From Kordia algicida OT-1 (GTDB lineage: Bacteria > Bacteroidota > Bacteroidia > Flavobacteriales > Flavobacteriaceae), in NCBI RefSeq assembly GCF_000154725.1, contig NZ_DS544873.1, positions 1,441,432 through 1,505,431 on the forward strand: 64,000 nucleotides of DNA, read 5' to 3'. Both the position numbers and the translations under genes were made by a program. Positions 23,423 to 31,013 of this stretch are shown here, piece after piece; position 1 is the stretch's first letter, and each line of letters starts with the position of its first letter. A model generated the notes under the pieces. It ran no database searches. It was given only the letters and a program-made list of their open reading frames with translations, and had not been told where the DNA came from.

Positions 23423-24430
23423 TTATTTTTTAAAAAATAGTTTTGGAAATCTTTTTTGTGGTTGTTGTTTAAAAATTTTGAGTGCAATTGTCGATTTTAA
23501 AAACCCAATTCCATATCCATAAAATTGAATACAGACAGCAACAAGCGACAAAAATGCTATTTTGATACTTTTTGTGGTACGCAAAGCATCTAATAGTATG
23601 GCAACAAAATATACGCCATAAGCAATTAAAAACCAATGAAAAGTGAAAAATATACTCAAAAATACAGCAATTAGTAATCCTATGCAGAATACTGTTGGAA
23701 ACCAATACGTGATTTTTGCCGTTTCGGGATGCCACAAATTTAGAATTGGACGTACCATTCCGAATTTGTTGACTTGAATATGGAACTTTTCCCAAGAAAT
23801 TCTACGTTTATGATACACAAAAGCTTCAGGAATTAAAACAGTTTCGTAACCTGCATTCCAAATACGAATGGTCAAATCAGGATCTTCTCCAGGATGAATT
23901 TGTCCAAAACCTTGTGTTTTTTCAAAAGCTTCTTTCGAAATTCCCATATTAAAACTTCTCGGTTGAAACTTGTTGACAGCTTTTTTTCCACCACGAATTC
24001 CGCCAGTTGTCAAAAATGCAGTCATGGCATAACTAATTGCTTTTTGTATGTCAGTAAACGAACTGTGTGCTGCGTCTGGTCCGCCAAAACAAGCTACATA
24101 TTTTTTTTGCAATGCTTTGGAAACTTCTGATAAATATTGTGGTGGCAGAATACAATCTGAATCAAAAATCAAATAATAATTCCCTTTGGCGCGTTGCATT
24201 CCATAGTTTCTGGAATCTCCCGGACCTGAATTTGGCTTGAAGTAATAACTAATATCCAACCGATCTTGGTAAGCATTCACTATATCTTCTGCTGGAATTG
24301 AAGAACCATCTTCCACAATAACTACTTCAAAATCATCTTGAAACGTTTGTTTTGAGATACTTTCTAGCAATTCCGCTACCTCATCGGGTCTGTTGAATAC
24401 AGGAACAATAATGGAGAATTTTATTTGCAT
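23423..24430 (-). CDS. Family 2 glycosyltransferase
   Basis: Residues 1-230 are a GT-A fold with MQIKFSIIVPVFNRPDEV at the N-terminus, the DxD-like FDSDC, and GPGDSRNYG as the nucleotide-sugar pocket. The C-terminal part has two to three membrane helices (about 235-300). The ATG at 24430 is chosen over 24451: the longer start would run through a promoter whose TATATTTG box ends five bases before this ATG, and the transcript would begin at or next to the A of the ATG. The product would transfer a sugar to a lipid or surface glycan. It leads the GT2-YbbR-coaE operon. Confidence 0.88.
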   Translation of the reverse strand: MQIKFSIIVPVFNRPDEVAELLESISKQTFQDDFEVVIVEDGSSIPAEDIVNAYQDRLDISYYFKPNSGPGDSRNYGMQRAKGNYYLIFDSDCILPPQYLSEVSKALQKKYVACFGGPDAAHSSFTDIQKAISYAMTAFLTTGGIRGGKKAVNKFQPRSFNMGISKEAFEKTQGFGQIHPGEDPDLTIRIWNAGYETVLIPEAFVYHKRRISWEKFHIQVNKFGMVRPILNLWHPETAKITYWFPTVFCIGLLIAVFLSIFFTFHWFLIAYGVYFVAILLDALRTTKSIKIAFLSLVAVCIQFYGYGIGFLKSTIALKIFKQQPQKRFPKLFFKK

Positions 24431-24434
24431 GTCG

Positions 24435-24465
24435 CAAATATAGGCAAACAAAAAAAGCTGTTCAA
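24435..24465 (-). promoter_or_regulatory. Promoter of the GT2-YbbR-coaE operon
   Basis: TTG (24463-24465), 20 bases, then TATATTTG (24435-24442) on the minus strand exactly fits the Bacteroidota consensus. By analogy with the SRP RNA promoter, the start point is about 24430, so the mRNA would have essentially no 5' leader. Confidence 0.65.
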
Positions 24466-24540
24466 TGAAGAATGATGATTAATCTTAAATATATGCTTGA
24501 TATTAGATTTATAAATTATGTTGCGAAAAAGCAACTATTA

Positions 24541-25689
24541 TCAAGGAGCTACAATAACATTTGTTCCAATAATATTTTCAATAGTTACATTATTTTTAAT
24601 TTCTTGAGTAAACACATACTTTACATCTGTAAAATCAAAAATATAATCTACAGAACCATTTCCTGCCGCATCTTTAGTTCGTGTAGATTCATCAAATCCT
24701 TCAGTAAGAAATTTTACGGTCTTTGTCGGGTACATTTCTTTTAAAAATTTTTCCTGTATTTCATGTCCTTTTGTATGTGCTGCTATAAACTCTGGACTTG
24801 CTGCTGTTAAGCCAGACTTGCTAGTTTCATAATTTGTAATGGCAAAGCGTTCTATCACAAAGTGTAATAACCAACTTTTAAATACATTAGTTGACATTGC
24901 AAGCATATCATCTAAATCTACTTCTCCTGATTGTACACTGTCAATAAAAATCCTATCAGAACTATCAATCAACTGTAAAACAACAGATTGACTTGCATTA
25001 ATGGCACTCAACATCGCTTTGTCATATACATTTTTTGGTATCAATTGCATATACTTTTGGTACAATTCGCCAGCACCATCCATAGCATATATAATTTTTG
25101 AACTGTCGTTTATCTTAGCCAAGAATTTAGCTCTTTTTGTAGCTGTGGTACCTTTAATACTCAGTTTTCGTTGCATCGTAGCAGAAGTAGAAGCCTTCGC
25201 GCCACGGTATTTAGAAACCGCTTCTCCTCTAGCCGCTTTTGCCCCAAAAGTATCTGCTTCACTTTCCAAATTCTTATCGTCATTAATATTGACACCTTTT
25301 TGTAAAACTTTAGTAGGTTTTACAACACCTGCACGTTGTTGTGCTACGTGTGTAAACTCATGACCGATTAAATTTTTTCCTTTGTCAGAATTCGGATTAA
25401 ACTCACCTAGTGCAAAATGCACTTGTTCTCCTTGTGTATATGCACGTGCATTCATTTGTACGGCTTTTTGTGAATTTGTATGAATAGAAACATTTGAAAA
25501 ATCTTGCCCAAAAGACGTTTCCATATTGGATTGCACGGCTTTTGGCAAAGCACTATTTTGCTTTTTTGAAAAACTTGAAGACGTAAAATTATTAGTACTT
25601 GCTTTTGGCTTTACAAATGAATTCCCGTCTTTTCTCTGTATAATATTATTTGTTTTTTCTTGATTGTCTTGTTTCTTCTTTGCTTTCAT
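24541..25689 (-). CDS. DUF4157 (eCIS-core) protein with HExxH motif
   Basis: This 382-aa protein carries a DUF4157 domain at about 44-118, matching the family almost completely: LPKAVQSNMETSFGQDFSNV, SIHTNSQKAVQMNARAYTQG, and HEFTHVAQQ (H110, E111, H114), a zinc-metallopeptidase-like motif. DUF4157 proteins are often linked to extracellular contractile injection systems as cargo or cargo-associated proteins. The N-terminal 43 residues are polar, Gln/Asn/Lys-rich, with no signal peptide, as expected for loaded cargo. The C-terminal 220 residues (after about 165) are unassigned and could be an effector domain. No injection-system genes are in this window, so it is an orphan. It is divergent from the HNH cassette (174-base gap). 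Confidence 0.8.
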   Translation of the reverse strand: MKAKKKQDNQEKTNNIIQRKDGNSFVKPKASTNNFTSSSFSKKQNSALPKAVQSNMETSFGQDFSNVSIHTNSQKAVQMNARAYTQGEQVHFALGEFNPNSDKGKNLIGHEFTHVAQQRAGVVKPTKVLQKGVNINDDKNLESEADTFGAKAARGEAVSKYRGAKASTSATMQRKLSIKGTTATKRAKFLAKINDSSKIIYAMDGAGELYQKYMQLIPKNVYDKAMLSAINASQSVVLQLIDSSDRIFIDSVQSGEVDLDDMLAMSTNVFKSWLLHFVIERFAITNYETSKSGLTAASPEFIAAHTKGHEIQEKFLKEMYPTKTVKFLTEGFDESTRTKDAAGNGSVDYIFDFTDVKYVFTQEIKNNVTIENIIGTNVIVAP

Positions 25690-25863
25690 ACACTGACTTT
25701 AAAGAGCTTTTCTTAAGAATTTAATAAAAAAACAAGATATTATTTTGCATAAAATCATCATAGGGGAAAAACACGGTATTTCCTGTCTTTGCTTTAAAGT
25801 TTATGAAATATTCACGTACTTTATGTAAGTAAAATAATTTACTACCATAAAAAAAGAACCGTT

Positions 25864-28236
25864 GTGATAAAAATTGACAGATATAAAATTCAAAAACCCA
25901 AATTTTTTCATTCCAAAGAATATGAACGCTTGCAACAAGAAATACGTGATTTTTACGGATTGCATAGAAATTCTCGTTCGCAACGTTCTTATGCTGTTCA
26001 ATATATGCCTGAGGAAGTCATCAGCGAATTGATGGAATTGTTTGATTATAAATGTGCCTATTGCGAATCGCACTTATTAGGTTTAAAATCTGGATATGAA
26101 TCGTATTTAGAACGCTTTAGACCTAGCAACAACGCACAAGGTTTTGATAGCAAAGAAATTGACGCCGATCATTATTGGTGGCTTACCTATGACTGGCAAA
26201 ATTTGTATGCAAGTTGTCACAGTTGCCAACGATTTAAATCGAATGTATTCCCTGTTGAAGGAAAAAGAGCTGCTCTACAAACAAATTATGACGAAATTGC
26301 CAAAAAAGAAGATGCTTATTTAATTGATCCATGTGTAGATTTTCCTGAAGAATTTTTTACGTTTAACTTAAAAACATATGAAATTATTCCAAATGAAAAA
26401 TCAAGTCCGTTAGCGTTCTCAAAAATAAAATTTACGCCTGTGGTTGGCGAAGTCATCAAGCAAAAAGCAGAAGCGACGATTCAAGTTTTAGGTTTGAACC
26501 GAAAAGACCTAATTTACGAACGCCAAAACATTGCAGAAGAAACCAAACGTGAAGTTGAAGGCTTACGAAAAGGGATTAAAAACTCACACGCCATTGCCAC
26601 AGAATGGAATGAAATTTTAGATGGGAAGTCTAAAAAAAATCATTTGGCATTTCGAAAAACACTTCTCAATTATTATATAACGGAAGACAAGGAAATTTAT
26701 AGTATCCTATATAATCTGTCCGATCAAATACAATCGTATTTAGATCAGCAACAAAACATGCAACAGGAAATTCAGAAACTACAAATACCACCGAATTTTC
26801 AGGCACAGGAACAAACAAAAGGCTTTAATGAAAGTCTTCCTGATGATCTTCTAGAAAACTTTATGAATGTTGATGATGAAAAGCCGCGATCATCCAAACA
26901 GAAAGAAAAAAAGAAAAAATATAGTAAGTATTTTGCTGATATTCTCAAAAATGTATACCTCGACAAAATTGAGTTGAAAAACTTTAAATGCTTTTCACAT
27001 CTTGTGTTAGAATTGCCAGGGTATGCCGAAGATACAAGTGCCGAACCTTGGTTGGTATTTTTAGGTGAAAACGGTGTTGGAAAAAGTTCTGTTCTCAAAG
27101 CCATTGCCATTGCGCTTATGGGAAAAGAATATTTAGATGTGCTTAAAATTAAAGTTGACGACATCCTAAAATACGGGAAACAAAGCGGTTATATAAAAGT
27201 GTATGGTAAAGGAAATGACGAAGTTTTTGAAGTCACTTTTAACAGAAAAACTCAGGAAATTACCGCAAGTGTTGAAACGCCTCCAGCATTTATCATTGGA
27301 TACGGTTCTACACGTTTGTTGCCTAACGGAAGAAATTTAGAACCCGAAACGGATCACCCAAGTTATTTAAAAGTAAAGAATTTATTTGACGCTTCTGTTT
27401 CACTGTCAAATGCAAAAGATTGGTTTTTAAATAGTGACCGAAAAACGTTCGATCAAGTGTCTAAAACCCTGAAAAATTTGTTATTGTTAGACGATTTAGA
27501 TTCTATCGGAAGAAGTAAAAAAAATAATCAAATATTTATCAAATATCATCACTCTGGCGACAATATTAATATTGACCATTTAAGTGATGGTTACAAATCT
27601 ATTTTTGCTGTTGCGATTGACATGATTTATACACTGTCGCAGAAAAACGTTGTGTACGAATTGGCAGAAGGAATTGTGCTGATTGATGAAATTGGCACAC
27701 ATTTACATCCACGATGGAAAATGGAAATTGTAGAACGTTTACGTAACACATTTCCAAAAATTCAATTTCTCATCACAACGCATGAACCTTTGTGTTTACG
27801 AGGTTTAAAAGAAAATGAAGTTGTGGTTTTAAAGCGTGATTCAGAAAATGCAATTATTGTTTTGAGCGAATTACCAGACCCAAGTAGCTTACGCATCGAT
27901 CAATTATTAACTTCAGAATATTTTGGATTGAATAGTACGATGGATGTCAAAACCGAGTTGCTCTTTAAAGAATATTATGAGCTGTTGGCTATTGATGAAT
28001 CTGAACGAAATGACGAACAGAAAGTAAGGCTTGAACAACTCCAAAAAGAAGTAAAAGAATTGAAATACATGCGTTTTGGAAACGACAAGCGCGAAGAAAT
28101 TATTTATCAAGTTGTAGACGAATTGTTAGCTAAAAACATGCGTAACAAAGACTTGAAAATTGATGTGAAAGATATTAAACAAGAAGCAATTGACAGAGTA
28201 CGTAATCTTTGGAAAAAATTAGATCAAAAAAAGTAG
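25864..28236 (+). CDS. Fusion of degenerate HNH domain and AAA (PtuA/SMC-like) ATPase
   Basis: This 790-aa protein begins at a GTG codon (MIKIDRYKIQ); no in-frame ATG was found just upstream. Residues about 55-160 follow the zinc-bound HNH layout of TIGR02646/PtuB-like nucleases (CAYC 64-67, SCHSC 117-121), but the catalytic motif xEHFRP reads LERFRP (His to Arg at 84) and the Asn after the last Cys is Gln122, so it looks catalytically dead. Residues about 365-665 are an ATPase: Walker A GENGVGKSS (401-409), signature LSDGYKS (573-579), Walker B VLIDEIG (605-611), switch H640 (TTHEP). A coiled, Lys-rich linker (about 340-355) joins them, and a C-terminal helical part is charged. It is the first gene of a two-gene cassette, two bases before the next ATG. 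Confidence 0.85.
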   Translation: MIKIDRYKIQKPKFFHSKEYERLQQEIRDFYGLHRNSRSQRSYAVQYMPEEVISELMELFDYKCAYCESHLLGLKSGYESYLERFRPSNNAQGFDSKEIDADHYWWLTYDWQNLYASCHSCQRFKSNVFPVEGKRAALQTNYDEIAKKEDAYLIDPCVDFPEEFFTFNLKTYEIIPNEKSSPLAFSKIKFTPVVGEVIKQKAEATIQVLGLNRKDLIYERQNIAEETKREVEGLRKGIKNSHAIATEWNEILDGKSKKNHLAFRKTLLNYYITEDKEIYSILYNLSDQIQSYLDQQQNMQQEIQKLQIPPNFQAQEQTKGFNESLPDDLLENFMNVDDEKPRSSKQKEKKKKYSKYFADILKNVYLDKIELKNFKCFSHLVLELPGYAEDTSAEPWLVFLGENGVGKSSVLKAIAIALMGKEYLDVLKIKVDDILKYGKQSGYIKVYGKGNDEVFEVTFNRKTQEITASVETPPAFIIGYGSTRLLPNGRNLEPETDHPSYLKVKNLFDASVSLSNAKDWFLNSDRKTFDQVSKTLKNLLLLDDLDSIGRSKKNNQIFIKYHHSGDNINIDHLSDGYKSIFAVAIDMIYTLSQKNVVYELAEGIVLIDEIGTHLHPRWKMEIVERLRNTFPKIQFLITTHEPLCLRGLKENEVVVLKRDSENAIIVLSELPDPSSLRIDQLLTSEYFGLNSTMDVKTELLFKEYYELLAIDESERNDEQKVRLEQLQKEVKELKYMRFGNDKREEIIYQVVDELLAKNMRNKDLKIDVKDIKQEAIDRVRNLWKKLDQKK

Positions 28237-28238
28237 TT

Positions 28239-29129
28239 ATGATTGCAATTGACCGAAATTCCGTTGAAATTCCAGACATTCTCAAAGATGGAAGCGAAAA
28301 GTTGAAAAAAGAACTTGAAGAAGCGATTGCGTACTATTCAGATCCTGCAAATACAAAAGCATTCAAGTTTAAAGTATACAGCAATCCAACAGTGAAAGAA
28401 GCACTTATAAAAATGAGCATTGGAAAATGCGCGTATTGTGAAAGTGATATTTTGGTAACGTATGTTGGTGATATTGAGCATTTTCGTCCAAAAGGTGAAA
28501 TTGAAGAACTAAAAGCCACAGGAAACTCCAAACCAGGTTACTATTGGCTTGCTGCCAATTGGGACAATTTATTATTATCGTGTCGAAATTGCAATCAGAA
28601 GTCCAAACAACGAACGGCAAGTGATGATCGATTGAACAGTCTTGGAAAAATGAATCAATTTCCTTTATTTGATGAAACAAAAAGAGCACGGTCTCCAGAA
28701 GATAATTTTCAAGAAGAAGAAAAAGTGCGTTTACTGTTAAATCCGTGTATTGAAGATCCAGAAGAATATTTTAAATACAATATCAATTCTGGTGTGATTC
28801 AACCAAAAAAACAAGAAGAATTTCCAAAACAACGTGCGTTAGCCTCTGTAAAAGTATTTGGTTTGCAACGTGTTCCTTTGGTACATGCGCGTGCAAAAAA
28901 AGCAGTTCAAATTTTAAAACAAATGACACGAGTAGAAAGACGTTACAAAGATTTACTACGTGCTATTGATGATGAAGCGGATGACATTCCTGATCGTCAA
29001 GAAGAATTGGATTGGGAAATTGAAGAACTACACAGTTTTTTAAATCCTACAGAAGAATATTTAGGCATGGCGCGACAAATGATTGGCGAATTTATGCAAA
29101 AGAATTTTCAATTAGATATTTCTGCTTGA
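28239..29129 (+). CDS. Standalone HNH endonuclease (PtuB-like), partner of the HNH-ATPase fusion
   Basis: The ATG at 28239 (two bases after the upstream stop) gives 296 aa; a TTG at 28209 would overlap the previous gene and is not needed. The HNH core is intact: C64 and C67 (CAYC), E80-H81 (DIEHFRPKG), W108 and N110 (NWDNLL), C115, C118 and N119 (CRNCNQ). The N-terminus (MIAIDRNSVEIP) and the spacing of both zinc pairs mirror the upstream fusion, so the two HNH domains are paralogous, one active and one degenerate. Residues about 165-215 repeat the LLNPCIEDPEEYF block that also occurs in the fusion (LIDPCVDFPEEFF). Family knowledge (Septu PtuB) suggests a DNA- or RNA-cutting effector gated by the ATPase. 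Confidence 0.85.
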   Translation: MIAIDRNSVEIPDILKDGSEKLKKELEEAIAYYSDPANTKAFKFKVYSNPTVKEALIKMSIGKCAYCESDILVTYVGDIEHFRPKGEIEELKATGNSKPGYYWLAANWDNLLLSCRNCNQKSKQRTASDDRLNSLGKMNQFPLFDETKRARSPEDNFQEEEKVRLLLNPCIEDPEEYFKYNINSGVIQPKKQEEFPKQRALASVKVFGLQRVPLVHARAKKAVQILKQMTRVERRYKDLLRAIDDEADDIPDRQEELDWEIEELHSFLNPTEEYLGMARQMIGEFMQKNFQLDISA

Positions 29130-29738
29130 CTTCGACTCCACTGAGTCTGTATTTTTTTTTGAATTTACTTCAAACAAAAATTTGGTTTCTCTACTTACAG
29201 ATTGCTACAGTTTTTAATGTAACAATTTGAAAATTTGAAAATGTATCAATTAGCTTCAAACAATACTCAACTTCTTCTTGGAAAAGCATTTAACAATCAA
29301 AACGTAGCATTTTATATAAAATCAAATAATGCTATCAGAAACAACCTTGAATCATTAAATTTTTAAATCCTTGAATTAAGCAAAGCGAAAAAAAGGCATT
29401 AGCTTTTGGGAATTAGGTATTAGTCAAGTTCTAAGAGTAATTAGAAATTCAAACTAAAATACGAATATACTTTGAACGACAGCGATACTTAAATTTTAAT
29501 GTAACAATTTGTTTCAAATAACACTTAATTTCTTCTCAGAAACAACCTTTAATCATTGAATTTTTGAATTGATGAGCGAAGCGATTCCAAAAGCAAAGCG
29601 TTTCTAACAGCGAAGCGTGTCCAAAAGCGATAGCGATCTAACAGGCGAAGCCGATCGTATCTAAAAGCAATAACTTTATTCATAAAAGAACATTCTTCTT
29701 TATGTATCACAACTTAAAATCGAAACAACCTTAAATCA
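29130..29738. repeat. Intergenic region with three copies of a dispersed 90-175 bp repeat
   Basis: Three direct copies of one AT-rich repeat lie at about 29214-29390, 29496-29586 (internally shortened) and 29700-29772. All share CAGAAACAACCTT..AATCATT, AATTTTTAAAT and a final GAGC(A/G)AAGCG. Inverted copies lie at 44490-45145. Short GCGAAGCG/GCAAAGCG units continue at 29573-29660. The last copy runs into the 3' coding end of the D-amino-acid dehydrogenase gene. No real gene is seen; a 41-codon ORF inside the first copy appears spurious. Confidence 0.7.
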
Positions 29739-31013
29739 TTAAATTTTTAAATCCTTGAATTGAGCGAAGCGAAATCGTTCCACCTCAAAACCTTCCAATT
29801 TCATCGAAGTTGGCTTCACTCCTATCAATTCACTGACCAATTTTCCTGTAGCCGGACCCAAACTCCAACCCATCATGGCGTGACCTGTCGCAACTGTCAA
29901 GTTTTGATAATATTGCGTTTTTCCGATATACGGCAAACCATCTGGCGAACACGGACGCAATCCGCAGGCAGCATTTGCAATCGAATTTTCTGGAATTTTC
30001 AATCCGTTATAAAAAGTTTCTGCAGCATTTGCAATAGCTTTCACGCGTTTCGGATTGATCTTGTGGTTAATTCCGCCAAGCTCCATCGTTCCTGCAAAGC
30101 GTGTAAATCCTTGCATCGGCGTTACGGCAACTTTGGCTTCAGCTAAAATTGTGGGCATCGTAATTCCTGTACTTTCTGTAACATCTATTCGGTAGCCTTT
30201 TCCCGCTTGAAGCGGAAGTTGTATGCGTAACTTTTTTGCCAAAATGGAACTCCATGTACCTGCCGAAAGTACAAATTCGTCTGCTTTTAGTGTTCGTTTC
30301 GAAGTCTGTACAGCAACAATTTTTTCCTTTTCATACTGTAGATCGGAAATGGGTTCGTTCGTATAAAACTGAACTCCTTTTTGCTTTAAAAAAGCGATCA
30401 TCTGTGGCATAAAATTCGTTGGTGTCATGTGCGCATCCGAATCAAAATAAATAGCACCTTTAATATTAAAATCTATATTTGGTTCTAGTTTTTTGACTGC
30501 TGATTTTGTTAAGTTTTCAACATGCAAACCTTCTTCGATAGCAAGTTTTCCCATGTTCCACTCTGCTTCGCCTTCTTTATCTGTTTGATAACACATCAAC
30601 AAACCTTTCCGTTCCAAGTGAAAATCGAAATCGCCAGAATTTTGCATGTCTACATACAATTCTCGACTCAACAAATTAATTTCTTTTATCTTCGGAATCG
30701 AGCGTGCTACATTTTTTGCTGTCGCCGATTTTTTAAACAACCAAGACCATTTTAAAAAATCGGCTTCCAAGCGTGGTTTTATATAAAACGGACTTGACGA
30801 ATTTAGCATCCATTTCAAACCTTTGGTAATCATTCCTGGCGCAGCCAACGGAATAATGTGACTTGGTGTGATATAACCTGCATTTACAAAAGAAGCTCCG
30901 CTAGAAATATCGCTTTTATCTACAATAGTAACTTGGTGTCCGTCTTGCTGCAAATAATACGCGCAACACAGTCCAATAATTCCGCCACCGATAATGATAA
31001 TTTCTTTTTTCAA
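29739..31013 (-). CDS. FAD-dependent D-amino-acid dehydrogenase (hydroxyproline pathway)
   Basis: This 424-aa DAO/DadA-type flavoenzyme starts at TTG (an in-frame TAG lies six bases upstream, so no earlier start is possible). FAD is bound at GGGIIGLCCAYYL and SGASFVNAGYI; the C-terminal part carries GLRPCSPDGLPYIGKT and TGHAMMGWSLGPATG. In context it would oxidise cis-4-hydroxy-D-proline to 1-pyrroline-4-hydroxy-2-carboxylate, passing electrons to the respiratory chain. The last residues (RFAQFKDLKI) are encoded by a dispersed repeat that overlaps the gene end. It is separated from the epimerase gene by a 453-bp repeat-rich spacer, so it may have its own promoter. Confidence 0.85.
   Translation of the reverse strand: MKKEIIIIGGGIIGLCCAYYLQQDGHQVTIVDKSDISSGASFVNAGYITPSHIIPLAAPGMITKGLKWMLNSSSPFYIKPRLEADFLKWSWLFKKSATAKNVARSIPKIKEINLLSRELYVDMQNSGDFDFHLERKGLLMCYQTDKEGEAEWNMGKLAIEEGLHVENLTKSAVKKLEPNIDFNIKGAIYFDSDAHMTPTNFMPQMIAFLKQKGVQFYTNEPISDLQYEKEKIVAVQTSKRTLKADEFVLSAGTWSSILAKKLRIQLPLQAGKGYRIDVTESTGITMPTILAEAKVAVTPMQGFTRFAGTMELGGINHKINPKRVKAIANAAETFYNGLKIPENSIANAACGLRPCSPDGLPYIGKTQYYQNLTVATGHAMMGWSLGPATGKLVSELIGVKPTSMKLEGFEVERFRFAQFKDLKI

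What the first reader, a model, noticed from the sequence alone, without database searches (positions are those of the whole stretch)
25864..29129. Two-gene HNH/ATPase cassette with one degenerate and one intact HNH domain
The first protein fuses an HNH-like domain to an AAA ATPase, and the second is a separate HNH protein whose zinc pairs fall at the same residue numbers (64/67). In the fusion the catalytic His is Arg (LERFRP) and the following Asn is Gln, while the second protein keeps both (DIEHFRP, CRNCNQ). The genes are two bases apart. In established Septu systems PtuA (ATPase) and PtuB (HNH) are separate; here a dead HNH copy appears built into the ATPase, possibly as a docking, DNA-sensing or inhibitory module for the active one. 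This is the best candidate for an undescribed defence-type system in the window.
Basis: partly seen in the sequence, partly recalled or inferred. Interest (0 to 1): 0.8.

Follow-up and report, generated by a model that had tools for sequence, protein, structure and literature searches.

The report
Septu defence with built-in dead nuclease
This two-gene cassette belongs to a known family of bacterial anti-phage systems, but its motor protein carries a second, usually inactivated copy of the nuclease beside the active one, a recurring design which suggests that the dead copy holds or controls the live one.

Summary
Gene 1 (25864-28236) joins a PtuB-like HNH domain to a PtuA-type ATPase; gene 2 (28239-29129) is a free PtuB. 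The HNH site reads E-R..Q in the fusion and E-H..N in the free protein. It is not an undescribed system type: PADLOC PtuA and PtuB models match both proteins nearly end to end, so it is a Septu variant. What looks new is the pattern over 55 such systems. Each has a free PtuB next to it. The free PtuB keeps E80/H81/N119 in 55 of 55; the fused copy keeps an acidic-His-Asn triad in 14 of 55, with at least 12 changes of the His state by parsimony, while its four zinc cysteines stay in 55 of 55. In Kordia none of 11 orthologues has the triad, yet the fused domain is under purifying selection like PtuB (median dN/dS 0.156 against 0.141). So this is neither local loss nor decay, but a maintained pseudo-nuclease. 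Most likely it is a tethered seat or pseudo-partner for the active PtuB on the ATPase assembly. All 11 Kordia genomes searched carry it, 10 of them beside a DUF4157 gene.

The parts
25864..28236 (+). Fusion gene: PtuB-like HNH domain plus PtuA-type ATPase, 790 aa, GTG start
   Evidence: PADLOC PtuA PDLC00292, 809 bits, residues 1-789 against profile 1-721 of 726.
25864..26538 (+). Pseudo-HNH domain (residues about 1-225), homologous to PtuB
   Evidence: E 2e-23 to the free PtuB; PtuB models; 13-row profile of fused domains matches solved PtuB chains, best 9.8e-10.
26053..26064 (+). First zinc cysteine pair C64, C67 of the fused domain
   Evidence: Kept in 55 of 55 fused copies.
26110..26115 (+). 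E83-R84: catalytic His position of the HNH motif, here Arg
   Evidence: H81-equivalent kept in 27 of 55 fused copies, in 55 of 55 partners.
26215..26229 (+). Second zinc pair C118, C121 and Q122 (catalytic Asn position, here Gln)
   Evidence: Asn kept in 25 of 55 fused copies, 55 of 55 partners.
26539..26943 (+). Variable linker (residues about 226-360), Gln-rich in most Kordia orthologues
   Evidence: mean identity 0.44, median dN/dS 0.363; 157 consecutive Gln in locus L105.
26944..28143 (+). AAA/ABC-type ATPase domain (residues about 361-760)
27064..27087 (+). Walker A (G401-S408)
   Evidence: G401 N403 G404 G406 K407 S408 invariant in 28 of 28.
27673..27690 (+). Walker B (I604-E609)
   Evidence: D608 E609 invariant in 28 of 28.
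28239..29129 (+). Free PtuB, HNH endonuclease, 296 aa
   Evidence: PADLOC PtuB PDLC00319, 376 bits, residues 1-289; NCBIfam PtuB 74.2 bits, under its cut-off of 150.
28479..28481 (+). H81 of the free PtuB (general base by analogy)
   Evidence: Kept in 55 of 55 partners; the matching His is needed for defence in two published Septu systems (passages).
28593..28595 (+). N119 of the free PtuB
   Evidence: Kept in 55 of 55 partners.
24541..25689 (-). Divergent DUF4157 (eCIS_core) protein, 382 aa; linked gene, not shown to be part of the system
   Evidence: PF13699, 2.2e-25; an eCIS_core gene lies beside the cassette in 10 of 11 Kordia genomes.

Best explanation
A Septu-family anti-phage cassette in which PtuB was duplicated: one copy became fused to the N-terminus of the PtuA ATPase, the other stayed a free gene downstream. 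The free PtuB does the cutting. The fused copy is kept as a folded zinc-bearing pseudo-nuclease, on a flexible linker, and most likely offers the active PtuB a permanent seat on the ATPase assembly (as pseudo-partner or docking site), so that catalysis runs through one active subunit under ATPase control. Shown here: homology, co-occurrence, repeated loss of the active site only in the fused copy, purifying selection on it. Inferred: that PtuB cuts in these systems, that the fused copy binds it, and that the ATPase gates it.
For: Full-length PADLOC PtuA and PtuB matches. A free PtuB next to the fusion in 55 of 55 systems. Partner triad 55 of 55, canonical PtuB 27 of 28, fused triad 14 of 55. 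Of 29 columns at least 95% conserved in partners, the five least kept in fused copies are G100, E80, K85, N119, H81, while C64, C67, C115, C118, N110, P84 and others are 55 of 55. At least 12 His-state and 7 Asn-state changes by parsimony on the ATPase tree. Kordia median dN/dS 0.156 fused domain, 0.141 PtuB, 0.095 ATPase (34, 51 and 46 of 55 pairs measurable, the rest saturated). Changing the His of PtuB abolished defence in E. coli and Providencia Septu (PMC13096335 and PMC12935923, passages). PtuB is sub-stoichiometric in known complexes: 6:2 in a review table (PMC12948488, passage); for one retron, 28 PtuA chains in 7 PDB entries and 10 PtuB chains in 5, which leaves room for a second PtuB-like seat.
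Against: 14 of 55 fused copies keep the triad, so a dead copy is not required everywhere; treated as one trait the triad changes only 4 times on the tree. One Kordia (L017/L096) has His but neither acidic residue nor Asn. The largest drop, G100, is not known to be catalytic. No phage test exists for any of these fusions in the papers found. The tree has long branches and uncertain forks.
Confidence: 0.55

Rival explanations
1. The fused domain is a second nuclease in its own right: in the 14 intact systems two active HNH copies cut two strands or two targets, and lineages with one-cut targets (for example tRNA) let the second go.
For: 14 of 55 keep acidic-His-Asn, nearly all of one Bacteroidota branch; 6 of 7 systems in the MTase-HerA-NurA operon are intact. 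Published PtuAB targets vary: DNA for some Septu, tRNA-Tyr for retron-Eco7 and one E. coli Septu (PMC11555353, PMC13096335, passages).
Against: It does not explain why the copy is kept under strong purifying selection where it is dead, as in all 11 Kordia orthologues.
Confidence: 0.2
2. The fused domain is an inhibitor or sensor: it competes for the PtuB-binding or substrate site and holds the system off until infection.
For: The fold and most partner-conserved residues are kept while catalysis is lost; in one retron-Septu the effector is reported to be held inactive until release (PMC12948488, passage).
Against: No direct evidence; the fused domain is less positively charged than PtuB (median net charge -2 against +3), which does not favour nucleic-acid sensing.
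Confidence: 0.15
3. Local decay of a redundant domain in this genome.
For: It lacks His and Asn here.
Against: Loss recurs across phyla; cysteines and fold residues 55 of 55; dN/dS 0.156 in Kordia.
Confidence: 0.04
4. Not a phage defence system in Kordia but a domesticated genus-core function, perhaps tied to the neighbouring DUF4157 effector-like genes.
For: Present in 11 of 11 Kordia genomes, mostly at one locus, beside eCIS_core genes in 10 of 11, no sheath gene found (0 of 11).
Against: Outside Kordia the cassette lies near PADLOC-type genes and on plasmids; no DUF4157 match was found at the non-Kordia loci searched (flanks unequal).
Confidence: 0.1

Closest known systems
Septu type I (PtuA + PtuB), PADLOC PDLC00292/00288/00291 and PDLC00319
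   Same: ATPase gene followed by HNH gene; nearly full-length model matches.
   Different: Canonical PtuA (about 430-510 aa in L010-L013) has no HNH domain; here a PtuB-like domain is fused in front. PADLOC describes the fused models only as AAA ATPase domain.
Retron type I-A effectors PtuA/PtuB (Ec78/Eco7, Ec83/Eco4)
   Same: Same two families; solved PtuA and PtuB chains are the nearest structures by sequence.
   Different: Under NCBIfam equivalog cut-offs (142 of 500; 74 of 150); no reverse transcriptase recognised beside the window cassette (by reading ORFs only); no Rfam match.
PtuXYZ (DUF262, PtuA-like ATPase, BECR RNase; PMC11980606, passages)
   Same: A PtuA-like ATPase in a multi-gene defence operon.
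   Different: No HNH partner and no fused HNH described in the passages seen.
MADS (mad2, mad8, MAD3 models)
   Same: Weak likeness of the ATPase to MAD3 (34.5 bits, cut-off 420); related loci with MTase and HerA match mad2/mad8 models.
   Different: Only NurA-HerA-MTase plus fused Septu genes were seen; the window has none of these beside it.

Membership tests
Septu type I (PADLOC sense) | PtuA-type AAA ATPase with Walker A and B | tested here: met
Septu type I (PADLOC sense) | Adjacent PtuB-type HNH protein with intact His and Asn | tested here: met
Septu type I (PADLOC sense) | Protection against phage | not testable with these tools
   No experiment possible; no paper on these fusions found.
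Septu as solved (PtuA6:PtuB2) | ATPase and HNH on separate proteins | tested here: not met
   The ATPase carries its own PtuB-like domain; so this is filed as a variant, not as the canonical architecture.
Septu as solved (PtuA6:PtuB2) | 6:2 assembly | not testable with these tools
   No complex prediction; structure prediction unavailable.
Retron Ec78 PtuA/PtuB (NCBIfam equivalogs NF041760, NF041761) | Score over curated cut-off | tested here: not met
   142.3 of 500 and 74.2 of 150 bits.
Retron type I-A / Septu type II | Reverse transcriptase gene preceding ptuA | tested here: inconclusive
   The gene before the fusion is a divergent DUF4157 gene; no RT family search of the whole window was run.
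TIGR02646 HNH family | Score over cut-off 52.15 bits | tested here: not met
   Free PtuB 51.7, fusion 46.3 bits; just under.

The most novel reading that the evidence does not exclude
An asymmetric branch of Septu, spread over Bacteroidota, Pseudomonadota, Actinomycetota, Bacillota and Gemmatimonadota, whose ATPase carries an evolved pseudo-nuclease that scaffolds or gates a single active PtuB; catalytic asymmetry arose many times after one ancient duplication, and some members are built into a five-gene MTase-HerA-NurA-PtuA-PtuB system.
Probability: 0.4. Interest if true: 0.75.

Novelty: new variant of a known kind. Interest (0 to 1): 0.55.

Why it matters
Pseudo-enzymes that control an active sister are well known in eukaryotes (recalled). 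Here a bacterial immune nuclease shows the same arrangement with natural replicates: dozens of systems, a matched active control beside each, and both dead and intact fused copies. That makes it directly testable why known PtuA assemblies carry fewer PtuB than PtuA subunits and what the empty seats do. Annotation pipelines label these proteins only as PtuA ATPase, so the second HNH domain and its state are overlooked.

Tried and rejected
Local decay: rejected. Undescribed system type: rejected. Chance likeness: rejected. Retron: no sign beside the window cassette, but no RT family search was made. RNA element: no Rfam match in 24400-29800. Promoter and terminator scans at chance level (15 found, mean 15.6 in shuffles; 1 found, mean 2.4). 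Mobile-element ends around the moved trio: no tRNA in the window, no convincing flanking repeats, no GC step at the cassette. Structure model: not obtained. Literature: ten searches of the open library showed no description of a PtuA with a fused or dead HNH domain; the main Septu and retron-Septu structure papers are not held, so they may mention it.

Rows dropped before counts: near-identical or same-genome repeats (L002, L016, L064, L068, L096=L017, L100=L018, L104=L003, L109=L063, L115-L120, L122, L123 and others); L133, a plasmid PtuA whose ORF has no fused domain (an IS630 transposase lies just upstream). L113 was counted although a frame break splits its fused domain from the ATPase. 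Of 106 plasmid records with a match 16 were fetched; 15 have the fused domain. Fisher tests ignore kinship.

Full report
What is there. The window lies in a 5.03-Mb single-contig genome of the genus Kordia: the nearest named matches are K. aestuariivivens and K. jejudonensis. Gene 1 (25864-28236) encodes 790 residues: a PtuB-like HNH domain (about 1-225), a variable linker, and an AAA/ABC-type ATPase. Gene 2 (28239-29129) encodes a free PtuB of 296 residues. The HNH site of the fused domain reads E-R..Q, that of the free protein E-H..N. The genome holds no second fusion (the only other match is the free PtuB).

It is a Septu variant. PADLOC's PtuA model PDLC00292 covers residues 1-789 of the fusion (809 bits) and PtuB model PDLC00319 covers residues 1-289 of the partner (376 bits). 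Five fusions from different branches all match the three fusion-length PtuA models. So the architecture is already inside a public model library, though described only as AAA ATPase. NCBI's stricter retron Ec78 PtuA and PtuB models are not reached.

How general it is. I assembled 55 distinct fusion systems: 28 from the family search and the genome scan, 10 from further Kordia cassettes and one Flavobacteriaceae genome, 15 from plasmids and 2 from the order search. They come from Bacteroidota, Pseudomonadota, Actinomycetota (Tessaracoccus), Bacillota (Priestia) and a Gemmatimonadota assembly. In 55 of 55 a free PtuB gene lies next to the fusion, in the same direction. The fusion is uncommon outside Kordia: 8 of 299 family genomes, 3 of 395 phylum genomes, 7 of 395 order genomes and 3 of 395 class genomes, at the thresholds used; the window's own genome and several others recur in these samples.

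The key contrast. In free partners E80, H81 and N119 are kept in 55 of 55; in 28 free PtuB of other loci the triad is kept in 27. In fused copies H81 is kept in 27 of 55 (otherwise 18 Arg, 7 Gln, 1 Tyr, 1 Asn, 1 Leu), N119 in 25, an acidic residue at 80 in 36, and all three in 14. The four zinc cysteines, N110 and P84 are kept in 55 of 55 fused copies. Taking all 29 columns that are at least 95% conserved in partners, without choosing by function, the five least kept in the fused copies are G100 (11 of 55), E80 (14), K85 (22), N119 (25) and H81 (27). G100 has no catalytic role that I know. On the ATPase tree of the 55 the His state changes at least 12 times, the Asn state 7 and the acidic state 7, but the all-or-none triad only 4. 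Earlier trees with 28 and 43 systems gave 7 and 9 His changes. Parsimony does not give direction; loss is inferred because all partners and nearly all other PtuB have the triad. Several branches are long and several forks weak.

Origin. In a tree of HNH copies 25 of 28 fused domains group together, and 3 (L008, L028, L029) stand at the base of the partners (quick method). The ATPases of 28 fusions are separated from 5 canonical PtuA with 100/99 support. One old duplication and fusion is the simplest reading; two are not excluded.

Not decay. All 11 Kordia genomes carry the cassette. None of the 11 orthologous fused domains has the triad: 10 have Arg at the His position, and one has His with Asn and Ser at the other two places. 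Median dN/dS (Nei-Gojobori) is 0.156 for the fused domain (34 of 55 pairs measurable), 0.141 for PtuB (51), 0.095 for the ATPase (46) and 0.363 for the linker (51). Two of these genomes carry a second, distant fusion cassette whose fused copy is intact (L106, L107). Over all 1485 pairs of systems, fused domains are less alike than partners in 1164.

Mechanism. Shown: two PtuB homologues per system, one tied to the ATPase, with catalysis protected only in the free one. Known from passages read: the PtuB His is needed for Septu defence (PMC13096335; PMC12935923), and so are the PtuA Walker motifs. Known complexes have fewer PtuB than PtuA: 6:2 in a review table (PMC12948488); for one retron effector, 28 PtuA chains in 7 PDB entries and 10 PtuB chains in 5. 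I therefore think that the fused pseudo-HNH is a built-in seat or pseudo-partner for the single active PtuB. The target (DNA or tRNA) cannot be told. The inhibitor reading and the second-nuclease reading remain open.

Surroundings. In the other 10 Kordia genomes the cassette lies at a shared locus, with at least one common flank (a holA-like gene on one side in 8, a second common gene on the other side in 8; gene names recalled). In the window genome the holA-like flank lies about 336 kb away without the cassette, and beyond the cassette and its DUF4157 neighbour no gene within the 20 kb compared is shared, so these three genes stayed together. Outside Kordia I scanned 83 of 157 neighbouring ORFs: PADLOC families found include methyltransferases, HerA, LmuB, a CBASS cyclase and effector (best 25 of 100 families shown; no control set was run). 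In seven genomes the order is MTase-HerA-NurA-fusion-PtuB.

Novelty. Ten searches of an open-licence library found no account of the fused or dead HNH domain; the main structure papers are not held. I rate it a new variant of a known kind.

Noticed in passing
window 24541-25689 (-) and Kordia loci L096-L105: A DUF4157 (eCIS_core) gene sits divergently beside the cassette in 10 of 11 Kordia genomes: 14 of the 36 such genes in these genomes lie within 5 kb of it. Their C-terminal parts differ (weak NlpC/P60 and SH3 matches under cut-off), like polymorphic effectors, yet no contractile-sheath gene was found in 0 of 11 genomes.
   Followed up: partly
L020, L022, L034, L109, L115, L116, L117: Conserved five-gene operon N6/N4 DNA methyltransferase - HerA - NurA - fused PtuA - PtuB in seven Bacteroidota genomes; 6 of 7 have an intact fused HNH triad. 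Possibly a composite defence system. Flanks were unequal, so seven is a lower bound.
   Followed up: partly
L105:9312-9779: A run of 157 glutamines (156 CAA and 1 CAG codons) in the linker between pseudo-HNH domain and ATPase of one Kordia; other Kordia have shorter or no Gln runs. An in-frame repeat that could vary in length; draft assembly.
   Followed up: partly
L106 and L107 (G685, G682): Two Kordia genomes carry two fusion cassettes, one with a dead and one with an intact fused HNH copy.
   Followed up: no
window 24541-29129: Cassette and DUF4157 gene lie about 336 kb from the ancestral holA-like flank, which persists without them; the three genes appear to have moved or been kept as a unit.
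   Followed up: partly
window 29338-29774: Three 53-base direct repeats (75-94% alike) and short 17-base repeats just downstream of the cassette, unexplained.
   Followed up: no
L114 (Priestia megaterium plasmid): A fused PtuA plus PtuB lies next to a retron-type reverse transcriptase on the opposite strand.
   Followed up: no
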